Shown piece by piece: positions 8,058 to 15,200 of a DNA stretch of 44,817 nucleotides. The DNA is from Paludibacter sp. GTDB lineage: Bacteria; Bacteroidota; Bacteroidia; Bacteroidales; Paludibacteraceae. Made by a program: the position numbers and the translations under genes. How positions within the stretch are numbered: the stretch's first letter is position 1; each line of letters begins with the position of its first letter. Under the pieces are notes generated by a model that was given only the letters and a program-made list of their open reading frames with translations, had not been told where the DNA came from and did not search any database. Location of the stretch: the NCBI GenBank assembly GCA_030653695.1, contig JAURYY010000189.1, forward strand, positions 1 through 44,817, written 5' to 3'.

Positions 8058-9032
8058 ATGAATTTAATTGACAATATTCGACAACCGATAATTGAAGAAT
8101 TACATGTTTTTAAAAAAACTTTTGGAGATGCATTAGAAACAAATAATCCATTGTTATTGAACATTATAAAATATATTCTTGAAGGTACCGGCAAGCAATT
8201 GCGCCCATTGTTAGTGATACTTTCGGCAAAATTATGCGGTGAGGTAAATGTTGCAACTTATAACGGAGCATTGTCGCTCGAACTGCTTCATAATGCCAGC
8301 CTGATACATGATGATGTTGTGGATGACACACACGAACGTCGCGGTCGAATGTCAATTAATGCGCGTTGGACAAACAAAATTGCAATATTAACGGGAGACT
8401 ATTTATTGTCGAATGCCTTGATTAGTGCTACCCGAACAAAAAATCTCGAAATCCTGTATTCTATCTCGCAAATCGGTATGGAACTTTCCGACGGAGAATT
8501 GATTCAGCTTTCGAGCTCACAACAATCGAAAATTAACGAAGAAGATTATTTTAAAATTATCAAAAAGAAAACCGCACTACTTTTTGCAACCTGCACCGAA
8601 GTGGGTGGTTTGTCGGTAAATGCGGATCGTGAAAGTTTAATCCATTTACGTAATTACGGCGAATATATGGGACTTTGTTTCCAGATAAAAGATGATATTT
8701 TTGATTATTACAACGATATAGAGATTGGCAAACCAACAGCAAATGATTTGCAGGATGGGAAAATTACTTTACCTCTCATTTATGCTTTGCAAAATTCTTT
8801 CGATTCAGAAAAAGAACGGGTAATGATGATGATTGATACAAAAGATTTTACGAACGATAATGTAAACTTTATCATGCGTTTTGCCCACGAAAAAGGCGGA
8901 GTTGACTATGCCACCAAACGCATGAACGAATTCAAAATTAAAGCCATAGCTGAACTCGATAACTTTCCGGACAATGAGATAAAAAGAGCACTTATTATGT
9001 GTGCTGAGTTTGCTGCTTCGAGGGAAAGTTGA
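8058..9032 (+). CDS. Polyprenyl synthetase (trans-isoprenyl diphosphate synthase)
   Basis: GKQLRPLLVIL; LIHDDVVDD; FQIKDDIFDY motifs. Confidence 0.95.
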   Translation: MNLIDNIRQPIIEELHVFKKTFGDALETNNPLLLNIIKYILEGTGKQLRPLLVILSAKLCGEVNVATYNGALSLELLHNASLIHDDVVDDTHERRGRMSINARWTNKIAILTGDYLLSNALISATRTKNLEILYSISQIGMELSDGELIQLSSSQQSKINEEDYFKIIKKKTALLFATCTEVGGLSVNADRESLIHLRNYGEYMGLCFQIKDDIFDYYNDIEIGKPTANDLQDGKITLPLIYALQNSFDSEKERVMMMIDTKDFTNDNVNFIMRFAHEKGGVDYATKRMNEFKIKAIAELDNFPDNEIKRALIMCAEFAASRES

Positions 9033-9076: not shown

Positions 9077-9292
9077 CTCAGAGGATATTAAAAGTATATT
9101 ACATCTCTCCATTCAATCGAACTCAGCAAATTATTTGCTATCCGACTTTCCACAAACCGATTAATTTCCAAATTGCGTCCCAAACCGCACAAACTACAAT
9201 TGACGGAACAATCCATGCAAAAGAGTTTATACATTTTCCGTTTTTTTTTTTAATTTATAGTGTTGATATATTACAAAACCATGAATTAAAGT

Positions 9293-10090
9293 TTAATAAT
9301 CCCCTAAAACAGTTGCACCTGTCATAATAGAAACGCTTGCTCCGCAACCTAAGCGATTAGCACCGGCTTTTATCATTGCAACTGCAGTATTATAATCTTT
9401 TATTCCACCGCTTGCTTTTACACCCATAGTTGGACCAACAATTCTACGCATTAAAATAATATCTTCGACAGTTGCTCCACCTCCGGAAAAACCTGTGCTT
9501 GTTTTCACAAAATCGGCACCTGCTTTTTTTGAAATTTCACAGGCAAGAATTTTTTCTTTTTCAGTTAGCAAATTCGTTTCAAATATCACTTTTAAAATGG
9601 TATTTGCACGAGCTGCTCTTCTTACGGCTCGTATATCTTCTTCTACTAATTTTAAATTTCCTGATTTTAAAGCACCAATATTGATAACCATATCAATTTC
9701 TTTAGCACCACTTTCTATCGCATTTTGAGTTTCGAATGCTTTACTACGACTATCCATTCCGCCCAAAGGGAAACCAACTACTGAACAAACTAAAATGCCT
9801 GAACCTCTTAATTTTTTTGATACATAGGAAACCCAACTTGAATTTACGCATACAGATTTGAATTTGTACATCAATGCTTCTTTGCACAATTGATCAAATT
9901 GTTCTTCTGTAGAGTCGGGTTTCAACAAAGTATGATCTATATATTTTGCTAATTCTGCTAGTGGAATTGGTAAAATATTTTGTTTTTCTTGATTATTTTC
10001 TCGATTAGGAAGATTTTGTAATCCTGATTTTTCATTTAATTTTAACATTACCTGTTCGGTAATTTTGTCAATTAATTCGTCTTTATTCAT
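9293..10090 (-). CDS. deoC: Deoxyribose-phosphate aldolase with N-terminal encapsulation-peptide-like helix
   Basis: AKYIDHTLLKPDSTEEQ...VIFETNLL...FVKTSTGF...GVKASGGIKDYNTA; N-terminal MNKDELIDKITEQVMLKLNEK plus linker. Confidence 0.93.
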   Translation of the reverse strand: MNKDELIDKITEQVMLKLNEKSGLQNLPNRENNQEKQNILPIPLAELAKYIDHTLLKPDSTEEQFDQLCKEALMYKFKSVCVNSSWVSYVSKKLRGSGILVCSVVGFPLGGMDSRSKAFETQNAIESGAKEIDMVINIGALKSGNLKLVEEDIRAVRRAARANTILKVIFETNLLTEKEKILACEISKKAGADFVKTSTGFSGGGATVEDIILMRRIVGPTMGVKASGGIKDYNTAVAMIKAGANRLGCGASVSIMTGATVLGDY

Positions 10091-10097
10091 TTTTGTT

Positions 10098-10580
10098 TTA
10101 TTTTTTTTCTACCGACATCATTTTATTTATTCTAACCCAGTGCCTTCCTCCTTCAAAACCGGTTTCGAGCCAAAGTTTTGCCATTGAACAAAGTTCATCG
10201 GCTTTATGATTTAGCGTTCCCATGGTTAAAACATTTGCGTTGTTATGTTCCCGACTATTCATTATTGTTTTTGTATTCCAACATAAAGCTGCTCTAATAC
10301 CATTTACCTTATTGCAAACCATAGATGAGCCTATTCCGGCGCTATCGAGCATAATTCCACGATCACAATCTCCACTTGTTACTTTTTTTGAAACAGCTAC
10401 TGCAAAATCAGGATAATCTACTTTTGTGGTACTGTCGTTGGTTCCAACATCGACTATTTTATAGCCAACACAAGTAAGGTAAGATTTTATAATTTCTTTT
10501 GCTTCGTAAGATGCATGGTCAGAGCCAATTGCAACCCTACTAACATTCCGATTCCCTGTATTACTTTCCATTGCTGACAT
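10098..10580 (-). CDS. RpiB/LacA/LacB family sugar-phosphate isomerase, BMC-associated
   Basis: AIGSDHASYEAKE...GIMLDSAGIGSSMVCNKVNGIRAA...REHNNANVL...FEGGRHWVRI. Confidence 0.9.
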   Translation of the reverse strand: MSAMESNTGNRNVSRVAIGSDHASYEAKEIIKSYLTCVGYKIVDVGTNDSTTKVDYPDFAVAVSKKVTSGDCDRGIMLDSAGIGSSMVCNKVNGIRAALCWNTKTIMNSREHNNANVLTMGTLNHKADELCSMAKLWLETGFEGGRHWVRINKMMSVEKK

Positions 10581-10598
10581 ACTTTTGTTTTTTCGTTC

Positions 10599-10865
10599 TC
10601 ATGAAATCATATCAACTATTGCATAAACTATTGTTTTTACTGTAAGTGAATCCGGCTCATTTAAAACTGCTCTGGCAGAACCGCCCTCGTCTACAACTAA
10701 AACTGTATCACCAACTCCTGCCTGTATAGCATCTATGGCGAGAAATGATTTTCCAATTGCTGTTCCAGCTTTGTCAATAGGTTGAACAATCAAAATTATT
10801 TTTGATTCATATCCTTTCACTTTGGCTGTTGAAACCACATTTCCAATTATTTTTCCTAAAATCAT
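10599..10865 (-). CDS. BMC-P vertex protein (EutN/CcmL family)
   Basis: MILGKIIGNVVSTAKVKGYESKIILIVQPID...AIQAGVGDTVLVVDEGGSAR. Confidence 0.92.
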   Translation of the reverse strand: MILGKIIGNVVSTAKVKGYESKIILIVQPIDKAGTAIGKSFLAIDAIQAGVGDTVLVVDEGGSARAVLNEPDSLTVKTIVYAIVDMIS

Positions 10866-11194
10866 TTTTGTTCTTTTTGATCAGCGTGAGGTTTTGAAAA
10901 CACTTGTTTTTCGACCACATATTTTTTATCAATAATTCCCATTACTGCTACATCACAAGGGTTCATCGTGCTTTCAATCACTCTGCTTGCTTCCCTGCTT
11001 GTTTCGTAGTAAATAAAATCGCCTACTCCTGCTTTTATTGTGTCAATTCCTACAATTGGCAATCCTACAGTTTCATAATTTTCATCCAAAGGTTGTATGA
11101 GCAACAGCCTTGATCCCTCAAAAGATTCAACTTTTACTGTGCTTACAACGTTTCCTATGATTTTTCCGAATTTCATTTTTATATTAATTACCAA
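10862..11194 (-). CDS. BMC-P vertex protein (EutN/CcmL family) with C-terminal extension
   Basis: MKFGKIIGNVVSTVKVESFEGSRLLLIQPLD...TIKAGVGDFIYYETSREASRVI. Confidence 0.9.
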   Translation of the reverse strand: MVINIKMKFGKIIGNVVSTVKVESFEGSRLLLIQPLDENYETVGLPIVGIDTIKAGVGDFIYYETSREASRVIESTMNPCDVAVMGIIDKKYVVEKQVFSKPHADQKEQK

Positions 11195-11197
11195 ATT

Positions 11198-12610
11198 CTA
11201 AACAATTCTAAAATAATCAACTATAGTGCAACGGCGTTCTCGAGTAAATGTTCTAGCTCTTGTAACTCCATCTCCAGTTGGACTTGCAATGGTAAATGAT
11301 GCAAAACCTGCACCTCCATGTCCTAAACCTGCGTAACTCGGTCCATTTTTTATAAAAATTGAGCAATTCATTATTCTTGCCATTTTGCTAAGTTTAGCAA
11401 TATTCAACGAGTGCATAATTGCGGTATGTTTAAATCCATGCTCACATTCAACTGCCAAATCAATGGCGTCGTCAACATTACCGACACGAACAATAGGCAT
11501 TACCGGCATTAATTGTTCTGTCCAAACTAATGGATGGTTTTTGTCCACTTCGCAAATCAATAAGCGAGTTGAAGTCGGAACTTCCAGGTTGATACGTTTG
11601 GCAATATATTCAGCATTTTTACCTACAAATTCTTTGTTAGCTGCCCCTTCATGTCCTTTACGGCCTGGGTCAGCAATGACAAGTTCGGTTATTTTTTTAA
11701 TTTGCTCTTGATTTAATTCAACACAATTGTTATTTTTCATTTCAGCCTTTAAGTAGTCGGCAACTGAAGCAACAACTATAACTTCTTTTTCGCAAATGCA
11801 AATTACATTATTATCAAAACTTGCCCCGGCTACAATATCTTTTGCTGCTTTTGGAATGTCAGCGGTTTCATCGACAACACAAGGTGGGTTTCCCGGACCT
11901 GCTGCTATTACTTTTTTGCCACTGTTCATAGCAACTCTAACAACTGCCGGACCTCCGGTAACGACAAGTATCGCAATTTTCTCATTACTCATTAAATCTT
12001 TTGCCGATTCTATTGTTGGCTCTTCAATACAAGTAAGTAGATTTTCAGGACCTCCAGCATTTACAATGGCTTTATTCAAAAGATTTATTAAAAAAGCAGA
12101 TACTTTTTTAGCAGATGGATGAGGATTAAAAACAACGGCATTGCCAGCAGCAATCATTCCTATTGCATTACTTATTATCGTAACGGTTGGGTTTGTACTT
12201 GGAGTAATAGAACCAATTATACCGAAAGGAGCTTTTTCAACGATTGTTAAACCGTGTTCATCAGAAAAAGCTTCAGGCATAATATCTTCAACTCCTGGTG
12301 TTTTATGAATTCCAAGATTGTTTTTAACAATTTTATCTTCATATCTTCCCATGCCGGTTTCTTCCCAAGCCATTTTTGATAAAACTTCAACATTTTCCAA
12401 AGAAATTTTTCGGATACTTGTAATAATATCTTTTCTAATTTCTAATGAAAGTTTGTTGAAGATTTCGTATGCTTTTTCTGCAGCCAATATGGCTGTATTA
12501 ATATTCGAAAAAACTCCAATCGTATTGGTATTCCGGGTTTCAGGAAATATATTTAAGTCTTCAATAACCTCCTGAACTAATTTTCGGATATCATCTGTTA
12601 AGTTTTCCAA
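11198..12610 (-). CDS. CoA-acylating aldehyde dehydrogenase (PduP/EutE-like), BMC-associated
   Basis: EKAPFGIIGSITPSTNPT; AGPGNPPCVVDETAD; DNNVICICEKE catalytic Cys region; N-terminal amphipathic helix. Confidence 0.93.
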   Translation of the reverse strand: MENLTDDIRKLVQEVIEDLNIFPETRNTNTIGVFSNINTAILAAEKAYEIFNKLSLEIRKDIITSIRKISLENVEVLSKMAWEETGMGRYEDKIVKNNLGIHKTPGVEDIMPEAFSDEHGLTIVEKAPFGIIGSITPSTNPTVTIISNAIGMIAAGNAVVFNPHPSAKKVSAFLINLLNKAIVNAGGPENLLTCIEEPTIESAKDLMSNEKIAILVVTGGPAVVRVAMNSGKKVIAAGPGNPPCVVDETADIPKAAKDIVAGASFDNNVICICEKEVIVVASVADYLKAEMKNNNCVELNQEQIKKITELVIADPGRKGHEGAANKEFVGKNAEYIAKRINLEVPTSTRLLICEVDKNHPLVWTEQLMPVMPIVRVGNVDDAIDLAVECEHGFKHTAIMHSLNIAKLSKMARIMNCSIFIKNGPSYAGLGHGGAGFASFTIASPTGDGVTRARTFTRERRCTIVDYFRIV

Positions 12611-12712
12611 TTTTGTTTCTCCTTTTTTTTATACAAAATGAGGTTTTCTGTTTGTCGATGAGGGAATATGACCTGTTACCACAAAAGATTTTATGTTAAT
12701 AAATACAATAAA

Positions 12713-13000
12713 TTATTTGATGTACACAAACTTATCATCTTCTGAAATTCTGTCAATAATCCCAACGATAAGTGCATCGAGTGGCTTGTTTGTTGTTATC
12801 AGTGTTTCTCGTGCCGAGGTGCTTTCAGAAATCATAACCATTTCGTCGTACCCGGCTCCAATTATATCAACTGCAACAATAAACTCCCCCATTTTTTCTC
12901 CTTTTTGGTTCGTTTTTTCGATGAGTAAAAATGGAGCTCCGTCAATATTTAAACTTCTTGTATTACTTACCACAGAACCTACAACTTTTCCTAAAATCAT
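12713..13000 (-). CDS. BMC-P vertex protein (EutN/CcmL family)
   Basis: MILGKVVGSVVSNTRSLNIDGAPFLLIEKTN...IIGAGYDEMVMISESTSARET. Confidence 0.92.
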   Translation of the reverse strand: MILGKVVGSVVSNTRSLNIDGAPFLLIEKTNQKGEKMGEFIVAVDIIGAGYDEMVMISESTSARETLITTNKPLDALIVGIIDRISEDDKFVYIK

Positions 13001-13006
13001 ATTTTT

Positions 13007-13300
13007 TTAATTCTTTTGATAGGTATAAACTCCATCTTTTTCAATAATATCCACAATTGCAATAACGGCAGAATCTGTTGGCATACCATCAGTTACAGTA
13101 GTAAATCTTGCACTACTTCCCGAAACAAAAAAGACAATCTCTCCTGTTCCGGCACCGACACTGTCCATCGAAACAACAAAATCGTTTTTACCTTTTAGTG
13201 TAACAGGGTCAATTTTTTCTAAAAGTAATAATTTTATTCCTTCAATTTTTTCTGCTTTTTCTGTCGCTACAACAGTTCCTACTACTTTGGCTAAAATCAT
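13007..13300 (-). CDS. BMC-P vertex protein (EutN/CcmL family)
   Basis: MILAKVVGTVVATEKAEKIEGIKLLLLEKIDP...SVGAGTGEIVFFVSGSSAR. Confidence 0.92.
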   Translation of the reverse strand: MILAKVVGTVVATEKAEKIEGIKLLLLEKIDPVTLKGKNDFVVSMDSVGAGTGEIVFFVSGSSARFTTVTDGMPTDSAVIAIVDIIEKDGVYTYQKN

Positions 13301-13501
13301 ATTATTAAATAAGTAATTTCCTAAATATTTATAACGAATTTTTTAATTCAGATAAAAACAGGTACATTCTGAACTATAGAACAGAACGACCCATAATAAG
13401 CCCCAAGTTTATAAAAGATATAAACCAAACTATAATTAACAAGGAAGTACGGTGTAAAACTAAAGAATATAAAAAGTTAATCCAAATTCTCAGTTTAATT
13501 T

Positions 13502-14122
13502 TTAATACTCTTGTCTGCCGGTTATTTCAGCTAATCTTTTTTCTACGTTTGTTTTACATTCCAGCACTTCAGCTTCTTTACCGCCGATATATACTCTGCC
13601 AAATTTACCAAAGCCGAGAACTTCAATAATGTTGATGTTTGCTGATTTTTCTGCTTCATTTGCTGCAAAATAGGCATAACCTGCCGGTTCTATTTCTAAA
13701 ACAAAAAGGGTATCACCTCTTAACAACATCATGCCATTTCTACTTCTGTTTATAAGTTGAGCATGATGATCTTCAACGTTTCGAATTAATTGGCTTGTCA
13801 ATATTCTTGGTTTTATTCTATCGTCTTCAGTTTTTTCAATTGCTTTTAAAACTGCTTCTCCAGCCATTCTTGTATCTCCTTGACTGTCGGAATGAACTTC
13901 CAGCATACCATAAGCCCGTTCTACAATTTGCATACCAGGTGTAACATTGGTAGCTTTAAGTGCGACATCAGTTAGCGTATTAATTTCAATTCCGGGAGCA
14001 ATTTCTATAATGCAACATGCCTGTCCTCCAACTGGTAAATATCCTTTAGAAACTGTTGAAAGATAGGAAGCCATCTGTAATTGCAATGAATCTAAAAAAA
14101 CATAAGTTCTTAAATCAATCAT
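13502..14122 (-). CDS. BMC-T (tandem-domain, trimeric) shell protein
   Basis: 206 aa: MIDLRTYVFLDSLQLQMASYLSTVSKGYLPVGGQACCIIEIAPGIEINTLTDVALKATNV...VERAYGMLEVHS. Confidence 0.88.
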   Translation of the reverse strand: MIDLRTYVFLDSLQLQMASYLSTVSKGYLPVGGQACCIIEIAPGIEINTLTDVALKATNVTPGMQIVERAYGMLEVHSDSQGDTRMAGEAVLKAIEKTEDDRIKPRILTSQLIRNVEDHHAQLINRSRNGMMLLRGDTLFVLEIEPAGYAYFAANEAEKSANINIIEVLGFGKFGRVYIGGKEAEVLECKTNVEKRLAEITGRQEY

Positions 14123-14125
14123 GGT

Positions 14126-14431
14126 TTATTCTCCTTTTTTTGAATTTGTTATGCCCGAAAACATAACCGAATCCACGCTTTTATGTGGTCTTGGAATTAC
14201 ATGGCTTGATATTATTTCGCCAACCTTTTCAGCTGCTTTTAAACCTGCATCTACTGATGCTCTTACAGATGCAACATCTCCACGTACAATTACAGAGATG
14301 TATCCTCCACCGGTTTTTTCAAATCCAATAAGATCAACTTTAGCTGCTTTTACCATGGCATCAGAAGCTTCTATCATTGCAACAAAACTTCTAGTTTCAA
14401 TCATGCCTAATGCTTTTTCATTTTCTTCCAT
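14126..14431 (-). CDS. BMC-H hexameric shell protein
   Basis: MEENEKALGMIETRSFVAMIEASDAMVKAAKVDLIGFEKTGGGYISVIVRGDVASVRASVDAG; start chosen at internal Met because a TAnnTTTG-type box lies just upstream. Confidence 0.95.
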   Translation of the reverse strand: MEENEKALGMIETRSFVAMIEASDAMVKAAKVDLIGFEKTGGGYISVIVRGDVASVRASVDAGLKAAEKVGEIISSHVIPRPHKSVDSVMFSGITNSKKGE

Positions 14432-14470
14432 TTCAATAGATTTTAATTTGTTAGTTATCATTTTATAAAT

Positions 14471-14479
14471 GCAAAAGTA
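14471..14479 (-). promoter_or_regulatory. Candidate Bacteroidota -7 box (TACTTTTGC) for the BMC operon
   Basis: GCAAAAGTA on plus strand = TACTTTTGC on minus, ~40 nt upstream of BMC-H ATG; -33 element not clear. Confidence 0.45.
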
Positions 14480-14544
14480 ATTTAAAAATTTCAAATAATA
14501 AAAATATAAGTGCTATGACAAATATAATGTCGTATTTTATAAAA

Positions 14545-14730
14545 AGAATTGCGCGCCGATTTTCACGGATTAAGCGGATAAGAACGGATAATAATTAATC
14601 TGATTTAAAACCGATTTCAGTCATGCAAGCATGACTGATAAGACAGTAAATATCTAAATATCAATTTCAACTTATCGAAATTAAAATCCTTTTTTAATCC
14701 GCTATATCAGCGTTTATCCACGTGCTATTC
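14545..14730. repeat. Intergenic inverted-repeat element
   Basis: gaattgcgcgccgattttcacggattaagcggat ... aatccgctatatcagcgtttatccacgtgctattc form imperfect complementary ends. Confidence 0.5.
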
Positions 14731-14834
14731 TTCAATCATTTTTTATTCGATTATAAAACATTATTTAGTTCCACTTACTTACACCACATTTAAATCTTAA
14801 TTTCTCATCTCACTTTATTAATAAGTAAAGTTTC

Positions 14835-15200
14835 TTAACTTTCGTCAAGATACTTTATTTTCATATTTTCAAGATGTCGTATTTTATCTCGCATGGTTTT
14901 TTTTATCATATTTTTTTCAAAGGCATCAGTAAGATTCACGCCAGTTTGATTGGCTAAACAAATCAAAACCCACAGCACATCAGCCATTTCATCAGCCAGA
15001 TTGTAGGCAACATCTGACTCTTTAAACGATTGATCACCATATTTTCGGGCAATTAAGCGCGCCAGTTCTCCGACTTCTTCGGTCAATATTACCATGTTGG
15101 TTAACTCACTGAAATACCTTACACCAAAAGTCTGAATCCATTCGTCAACCTGCTGCTGGGCTTCTTCGATAGTTAAAGAGTTATTCATTGAGGCGGGCAA
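14835..15200 (-). CDS. MazG-like nucleotide pyrophosphohydrolase
   Basis: EEVGELARLIARKYG...LADEMADVLWVLICLANQTGVNL (EExxE-x-EXXD pattern). Confidence 0.88.
   Translation of the reverse strand: MPASMNNSLTIEEAQQQVDEWIQTFGVRYFSELTNMVILTEEVGELARLIARKYGDQSFKESDVAYNLADEMADVLWVLICLANQTGVNLTDAFEKNMIKKTMRDKIRHLENMKIKYLDES

What the first reader, a model, noticed from the sequence alone, without database searches (positions are those of the whole stretch)
9293..14431. Compact sugar-phosphate (DeoC/RpiB) bacterial microcompartment operon in a Bacteroidota genome
Seen: collinear minus-strand cluster BMC-H, BMC-T, BMC-P, BMC-P, AldDH, BMC-P, BMC-P, RpiB-like, DeoC. Knowledge: BMC loci with DeoC and an RpiB-type isomerase have been named sugar-phosphate-utilising (SPU) and are poorly characterised. 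Inference: DeoC cleaves deoxyribose-5-P (or a related sugar phosphate) into acetaldehyde plus G3P, and AldDH converts the sequestered acetaldehyde to acetyl-CoA.
Basis: partly seen in the sequence, partly recalled or inferred. Interest (0 to 1): 0.88.

Follow-up and report, generated by a model that had tools for sequence, protein, structure and literature searches.

The report
Microcompartment operon replacing housekeeping deoC gene
This nine-gene operon encodes a small protein organelle predicted to break down deoxyribose phosphate from DNA, and in this bacterium it sits exactly where its relatives keep their ordinary deoxyribose-phosphate aldolase gene, of which only a broken stub remains.

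Summary
Window 9293-14431 (-) is a compact bacterial microcompartment (BMC) operon: BMC-H, CcmP-like BMC-T, BMC-P x2, acylating AldDH, BMC-P x2, RpiB-like, DeoC. It meets the published definition of the sugar-phosphate-utilisation (SPU) type, so the kind is known. DeoC and AldDH carry encapsulation-peptide-like N-termini; DERA catalytic residues are intact. The RpiB-like protein has Asp where RpiB's catalytic Cys should be, as in all seven SPU homologues tested.

New here: the operon occupies the site (purB-psd-mazG-[ ]-polyprenyl synthetase-polA) where 44 of 48 genomes of the genus carry an ordinary deoC of a different type. That deoC is gone except for a fossil of its last 23 codons (9159-9091). 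One other genome of the genus (G747) has the operon, at the same site, with the same fossil. Between the two, the 5.2-kb cassette is 93.6% identical (dS 0.13-0.35) while flanking genes are saturated: it moved recently between species. No other of 395 class genomes sampled has BMC-P. Best reading: a transferred SPU organelle displaced the housekeeping aldolase in place and holds the only detected DERA, independent evidence that SPU cleaves deoxyribose-5-phosphate. No biochemistry was tested.

The parts
14126..14431 (-). BMC-H hexameric shell protein (101 aa)
   Evidence: PF00936 3.4e-30; HO BMC-H 5djb among closest solved relatives
13502..14122 (-). BMC-T, CcmP-like double-stacking trimer (206 aa)
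   Evidence: NF053796 CcmP 2e-85; CcmP 5lsr 5.6e-69
13007..13300 (-). BMC-P 1 pentameric vertex protein
   Evidence: PF03319 5.8e-24
12713..13000 (-). BMC-P 2 pentameric vertex protein (41% identical to BMC-P 1)
   Evidence: PF03319 2.3e-23
11198..12610 (-). Acylating aldehyde dehydrogenase, EutE/PduP-like, with encapsulation-peptide-like N-terminus
   Evidence: NF011927 5.6e-202; N-terminus MENLTDDIRKLVQEVIEDL
10862..11176 (-). BMC-P 3 pentameric vertex protein
   Evidence: PF03319 6.7e-22
10599..10865 (-). BMC-P 4 pentameric vertex protein
   Evidence: PF03319 2.7e-20
10098..10580 (-). RpiB-like isomerase; Asp79 and Ala81 stand where RpiB has its catalytic Cys and Thr
   Evidence: PF02502 4.3e-47; alignment to CtRpiB 3he8 and housekeeping RpiBs
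9293..10090 (-). DeoC, deoxyribose-5-phosphate aldolase with N-terminal helix 3-21 and disordered linker
   Evidence: TIGR00126 8.9e-86; D133, K196, K225 invariant; AlphaFold2 model
9088..9174 (-). Fossil 3' end of the ancestral housekeeping deoC (last ~23-28 codons and stop)
   Evidence: tblastn of congener DeoC: 70% identity over residues 270-292, E 1.6e-4 in the whole window; same fossil in G747, 87%, E 3.5e-7
9270..14506 (-). Cassette 93.6% identical to G747/L056, sharply bounded
   Evidence: blastn; dS 0.13-0.35 inside, saturated outside
14472..14479 (-). Bacteroidota-type -7 promoter box TACTTTTG, conserved in L056
   Evidence: sequence and alignment; consensus from general knowledge
14835..15200 (-). 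mazG-like flank gene, left neighbour of deoC in congeners
   Evidence: synteny
8058..9032 (+). Polyprenyl synthetase, right neighbour of deoC in congeners
   Evidence: PF00348 4.9e-65; synteny

Best explanation
A compact SPU-type metabolosome. Deoxyribose-5-phosphate enters the shell (probably through the gated CcmP-like BMC-T); [quoted passage not shown] EP-tagged acylating AldDH turns the trapped acetaldehyde plus CoA and NAD+ into acetyl-CoA and NADH. The operon reached this genus by horizontal transfer, displaced the ordinary cytosolic deoC at its own locus (leaving a 3' fossil), and its DeoC is now the only DERA found in the genome. Shown: genes, intact DERA residues, EP-like helices, displacement, fossil, recent spread. 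Inferred: shell assembly, encapsulation, substrate flow. Unresolved: the role of the Asp-type RpiB-like protein and how CoA and NAD+ are regenerated.
For: Families. EP-like N-termini on DeoC and AldDH, seen also in relatives from other phyla; helix 3-21, then a linker of pLDDT <50, then the barrel. Only one DeoC in the own genome. 44/48 congeners have the housekeeping deoC; the two with the BMC lack it. Same syntenic slot, fossil in both genomes. Other SPU genomes for which the BMC deoC was recovered (G800, G802-G805) also show only that DeoC. The Aminicenantes SPU locus L059 lies directly after 5'-nucleotidase, thymidine kinase, uridine kinase, phosphoribosyltransferase, adenosine deaminase and Na+/nucleoside symporter genes, which supports a nucleoside-derived substrate.
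Against: DeoB (TIGR01696) and the pyrimidine-nucleoside phosphorylase family (TIGR02644) are not found in the genome, so the classical route to deoxyribose-5-phosphate is not complete by these models (the Bacteroides control lacks DeoB too, while having DeoC). No PduL. An isomerase is not needed for deoxyribose-5-phosphate cleavage. No expression or biochemical data; the genome is a 98%-complete draft of 383 contigs.
Confidence: 0.78

Rival explanations
1. The organelle processes a different sugar phosphate: the RpiB-like isomerase converts an aldose phosphate to a ketose phosphate, which a repurposed DeoC cleaves to another aldehyde.
For: An isomerase is always linked in SPU; deoxyribose-5-phosphate cannot be isomerised at C2 (chemistry); the RpiB-like active site is altered, Cys to Asp and Thr to Ala, in 7/7 SPU homologues against Cys in 10/10 housekeeping RpiBs of the genus.
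Against: DeoC is above the DERA equivalog cut-off (286.7 vs 117.3) with catalytic residues intact; it displaced the housekeeping DERA in place.
Confidence: 0.14
2. A relic or non-assembling shell: the operon merely supplies a cytosolic DeoC.
For: One BMC-H and one BMC-T only; no PTAC, alcohol dehydrogenase or regulator in the locus; relative L058 has more shell genes.
Against: All nine frames are open and all nine genes have dN/dS 0.07-0.22 against G747, i.e. purifying selection on shell genes too; promoter box conserved.
Confidence: 0.06
3. The displacement happened once in the common ancestor of G000 and G747, and the low divergence of the cassette is due to extreme constraint, not to transfer between species.
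For: Same site and same fossil in both genomes.
Against: Synonymous divergence is 0.12-0.28 (pS) inside and 0.71-0.78 outside, changing within about 130-400 bp; constraint on protein does not do that. Lower GC3 in the operon (0.18-0.32 vs 0.34-0.42 in the flanking genes) also fits recent acquisition.
Confidence: 0.1

Closest known systems
SPU (sugar phosphate utilisation) BMC, Axen 2014 PMC4207490; Sutter 2021 PMC8217296 (subtypes SPU1-7, >280 loci, 26 phyla)
   Same: Shell genes plus PF01791 DeoC, PF02502 RpiB-like and AldDH; CcmP-like BMC-T as in SPU2/SPU3
   Different: In class Bacteroidia, where 1 of 395 sampled genomes has BMC-P; four BMC-P; no PTAC in the locus and no PduL in the genome; occupies the housekeeping deoC locus. 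Subtype not assigned (their HMMs were not available)
Haliangium ochraceum (HO) BMC
   Same: Shell proteins among the closest solved relatives of BMC-H and BMC-T; EP-tagged DeoC reported elsewhere in some HO genomes
   Different: DeoC and RpiB-like lie in the main operon here
EUT metabolosome
   Same: EutE-like acylating AldDH acting on acetaldehyde
   Different: No ethanolamine ammonia-lyase, EutD or EutG; the aldehyde comes from an aldolase
RpiB / LacAB isomerases
   Same: Superfamily, Asp-His and His-Asn active-site motifs
   Different: Catalytic Cys replaced by Asp79, Thr by Ala81; MtRpiB (Glu75) is the exception quoted in PMC3755991

Membership tests
SPU BMC | BMC-H/T and BMC-P shell genes clustered with enzymes | tested here: met
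SPU BMC | PF01791 DeoC and PF02502 RpiB-like in the locus (the two enzymes shared by all subtypes) | tested here: met
   definition in PMC8217296
SPU BMC | Acylating AldDH of the BMC type with encapsulation peptide | tested here: met
   (EP by sequence and homology, not by experiment)
SPU BMC | PduL-type phosphotransacylase (present in most loci of 2014, absent in Marinimicrobia per PMC4207490); usual but not defining in PMC8217296 | tested here: not met
   PF06130 not found in the whole genome
SPU BMC | Assignment to subtype SPU1-7 | not testable with these tools
   BMC Caller HMMs not available
Deoxyribose-phosphate aldolase (DERA) | Schiff-base Lys, second Lys and Asp | tested here: met
   K196, K225, D133 invariant; 8.9e-86 to TIGR00126; activity not tested
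Ribose-5-phosphate isomerase B (equivalog) | Catalytic Cys base; score above the TIGR01120 cut-off | tested here: not met
   Asp79 instead of Cys; 133.9 bits vs cut-off 138.65. Membership in the wider PF02502 superfamily is met
SPU BMC | Assembled shells and deoxyribose-5-phosphate catabolism | not testable with these tools
   needs TEM, growth and assays

The most novel reading that the evidence does not exclude
The SPU organelle operon behaves as an alternative allele of deoC in this genus: it moves between species by recombination through the mazG-side and deoC-3' ends, swapping a cytosolic aldolase for an organelle that contains the cell's only DERA.
Probability: 0.5. Interest if true: 0.75.

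Novelty: new member of a known kind. Interest (0 to 1): 0.6.

Why it matters
SPU is one of the most widespread BMC types, yet I found no paper in the held library reporting its experimental characterisation. In-place loss of the housekeeping DERA when the organelle arrives is a natural complementation experiment that argues for deoxyribose-5-phosphate as substrate. It also shows how a metabolic organelle can displace a single-step cytosolic enzyme, and the nine-gene, single-BMC-H version is a convenient minimal system to build and assay.

Tried and rejected
Looked for SPU loci in other Bacteroidota from 20 BMC-H regions: none is SPU; most are lone BMC-H pairs. Looked for remnants of the extra BMC-H/BMC-T genes of L058 in the two gaps of the operon: none. 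RNA families and tRNAs in the window: none. Folding of the conserved 201-nt gap: z -1.68, not convincing. Literature searches for BMCs in Bacteroidales, for deoC displacement and for SPU biochemistry gave nothing relevant.

Full report
OBSERVATION. The minus strand of 9293-14431 carries BMC-H, BMC-T, BMC-P1, BMC-P2, AldDH, BMC-P3, BMC-P4, RpiB-like and DeoC, tightly packed. All nine match the expected families. The BMC-T falls just under the PF00936 cut-off but is clearly CcmP-like. The BMC-H is close to the Haliangium shell protein. AldDH is of the EutE type (NF011927, 5.6e-202) and its nearest solved relatives are aldehyde dehydrogenases 5jfl, 6gvs and 4c3s.

KIND. Axen 2014 (PMC4207490) and Sutter 2021 (PMC8217296) define SPU by shell genes with a PF01791 DeoC and a PF02502 RpiB-like enzyme, with AldDH. 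This locus meets that. Most SPU loci of 2014 also had PduL; none was found in this genome. The same minimal enzyme set, with four BMC-P, is found in L056 and L058, and as far as the short contig reaches in L057.

CARGO. DeoC has a 44-residue N-terminal extension, MNKDELIDKITEQVMLKLNEK..., conserved in L056, L058 and L062; AldDH starts MENLTDDIRKLVQEVIEDL.... AlphaFold2 gives helix 3-21, a disordered linker (20-38 below pLDDT 50) and a confident barrel. That is the architecture of an encapsulation peptide. The DERA residues D133, K196 and K225 are invariant.

RPIB-LIKE. In CtRpiB (3he8) the motif is VICGTGLG; here it is MLDSAGIG. The position of the catalytic Cys is Asp79 in this protein and Asp in all seven SPU homologues aligned (own included), while ten housekeeping RpiBs of the genus keep Cys. 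The genome also has a housekeeping RpiB (C31, 42% identical). LacB C65A is inactive, and MtRpiB Glu75 is described as the exception to the Cys rule (PMC3755991). So the protein may still isomerise with Asp as base, but R5P isomerase activity is not established; it is also under the TIGR01120 cut-off.

DISPLACEMENT OF deoC. The genus holds 48 genomes. Forty-four have an ordinary ~292-residue DeoC of a different type; two draft genomes have none detected; the remaining two are this genome and G747. Of the 36 congeners also searched with the BMC DeoC, only these two have the BMC type. In congeners the order is purB-psd-mazG-deoC-(convergent) polyprenyl synthetase-polA. In the window the BMC operon sits exactly between mazG and the polyprenyl synthetase. 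A tblastn of a congener's DeoC finds its last 23 residues (270-292) at 9159-9091, 70% identical, E 1.6e-4 over the whole window, in the expected slot, strand and frame and with the stop codon: NRFVESRIANNLLSSIEWRDVIYF* against FRFGASRLANNLLSSIEGQEVKYF*. G747 has the same fossil beside its polyprenyl synthetase (87%, E 3.5e-7). In G747 a restriction/defence island lies between the operon and the fossil; the type IIG gene split between contigs C36 and C44 (profile positions 1-923 and 965-1099) argues that they adjoin. The chance that both BMC genomes lack housekeeping deoC, given four of 48 lacking it, is 6/1128 = 0.005 (ignoring kinship); the fossils are the direct evidence.

RECENT SPREAD. Between the window and G747/L056 (G747 contig C44 is L056, labelled Paludibacter sp. 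Chersky.4_43) the segment 14506-9270 is 93.6% identical, and identity falls to about 75% or none just outside. dS is 0.13-0.35 in the nine genes but at or near saturation (pS 0.71-0.78) in the ABC transporter, purB, psd, mazG, polA and polyprenyl synthetase genes. dN/dS of 0.07-0.22 shows purifying selection on shell and enzyme genes alike. The Bacteroidota -7 box TACTTTTG upstream of BMC-H is conserved. The first ~33 bases of the fossil are identical in both genomes and the rest diverged, which would fit a crossover inside the deoC stub; this is suggestive only.

DISTRIBUTION AND ORIGIN. BMC-P occurs in 1 of 395 class genomes sampled (197 genera): this one. BMC-H occurs in 80 of 396 phylum genomes; apart from this genome, all lie in other classes. 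That the class is Bacteroidia is inferred from the names of the close relatives. Named relatives of the AldDH: L056 95%, L057 (Lentimicrobium sp. MAG) 89%, L058 (Bacteroidetes GWA2_32_17) 75%, Aminicenantes 59%, Spirochaetales 57%, Anaerolineales 55%. L058 lies in a different gene neighbourhood and has an extra BMC-H and a further BMC-T. The DeoC tree puts window, L056, L058 and Spirochaetales L062 together (100/97), away from housekeeping DeoC; other SPU DeoCs are unresolved. The donor is unknown.

FUNCTION. Deoxyribose-5-phosphate to G3P and acetaldehyde, then acetyl-CoA, is the best-supported route. Independent support: the displaced gene was the housekeeping DERA; SPU genomes reached here show no other DeoC (G801 is uninformative because its SPU contig ends before deoC and it has a different DeoC); the Aminicenantes SPU genes follow a nucleoside uptake and salvage cluster. 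Open points: source of deoxyribose-5-phosphate (no DeoB or TIGR02644 match), cofactor recycling, and the RpiB-like enzyme. No biochemical step was shown here.

Noticed in passing
L046 8854-9840 and regions L036-L055; DeoC loci L133-L159: Other Bacteroidota classes often carry lone tandem pairs of BMC-H with no BMC-P detected nearby, inside housekeeping neighbourhoods, and many of the same genomes have a DeoC with an EP-like N-terminus and a Cys-rich insert (CCxDGxCxDxLCxxHN), sometimes 8-15 kb away: a possible dispersed SPU-like organelle.
   Followed up: partly
L123 4523-12735 and L056 11088-12316 (genome G747): A defence-like island (SNF2/HKD helicase, type IIG restriction-methylase split over two contigs, PsyrA-like/DprA-like gene, small HEPN/nucleotidyltransferase-looking pair) lies between the BMC operon and the deoC fossil, so the site may be an insertion hot spot.
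   Followed up: partly
L059 7105-8520: In an Aminicenantes MAG the RpiB-like protein and DeoC are one fused ORF of 471 aa with a Cys-containing linker, after a nucleoside uptake and salvage cluster.
   Followed up: partly
L062 2800-4026: The Spirochaetales SPU DeoC is followed by an ATP-grasp/ATP-citrate-lyase-like (acyl-CoA ligase type) gene, a possible way to recover CoA and ATP from acetyl-CoA without PduL.
   Followed up: no
L058 11468-11866: An ORF that by eye looks like the four-helix-bundle 23S rRNA intervening-sequence type sits inside the BMC operon between AldDH and BMC-P3.
   Followed up: no
window 13301-13501: A 201-nt non-coding gap between BMC-T and BMC-P1 is well conserved with L056 but has no significant fold and no shell-gene remnant.
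   Followed up: yes
window 14507-14780: About 270 bases between mazG and the operon promoter are absent from L056; origin unknown.
   Followed up: no
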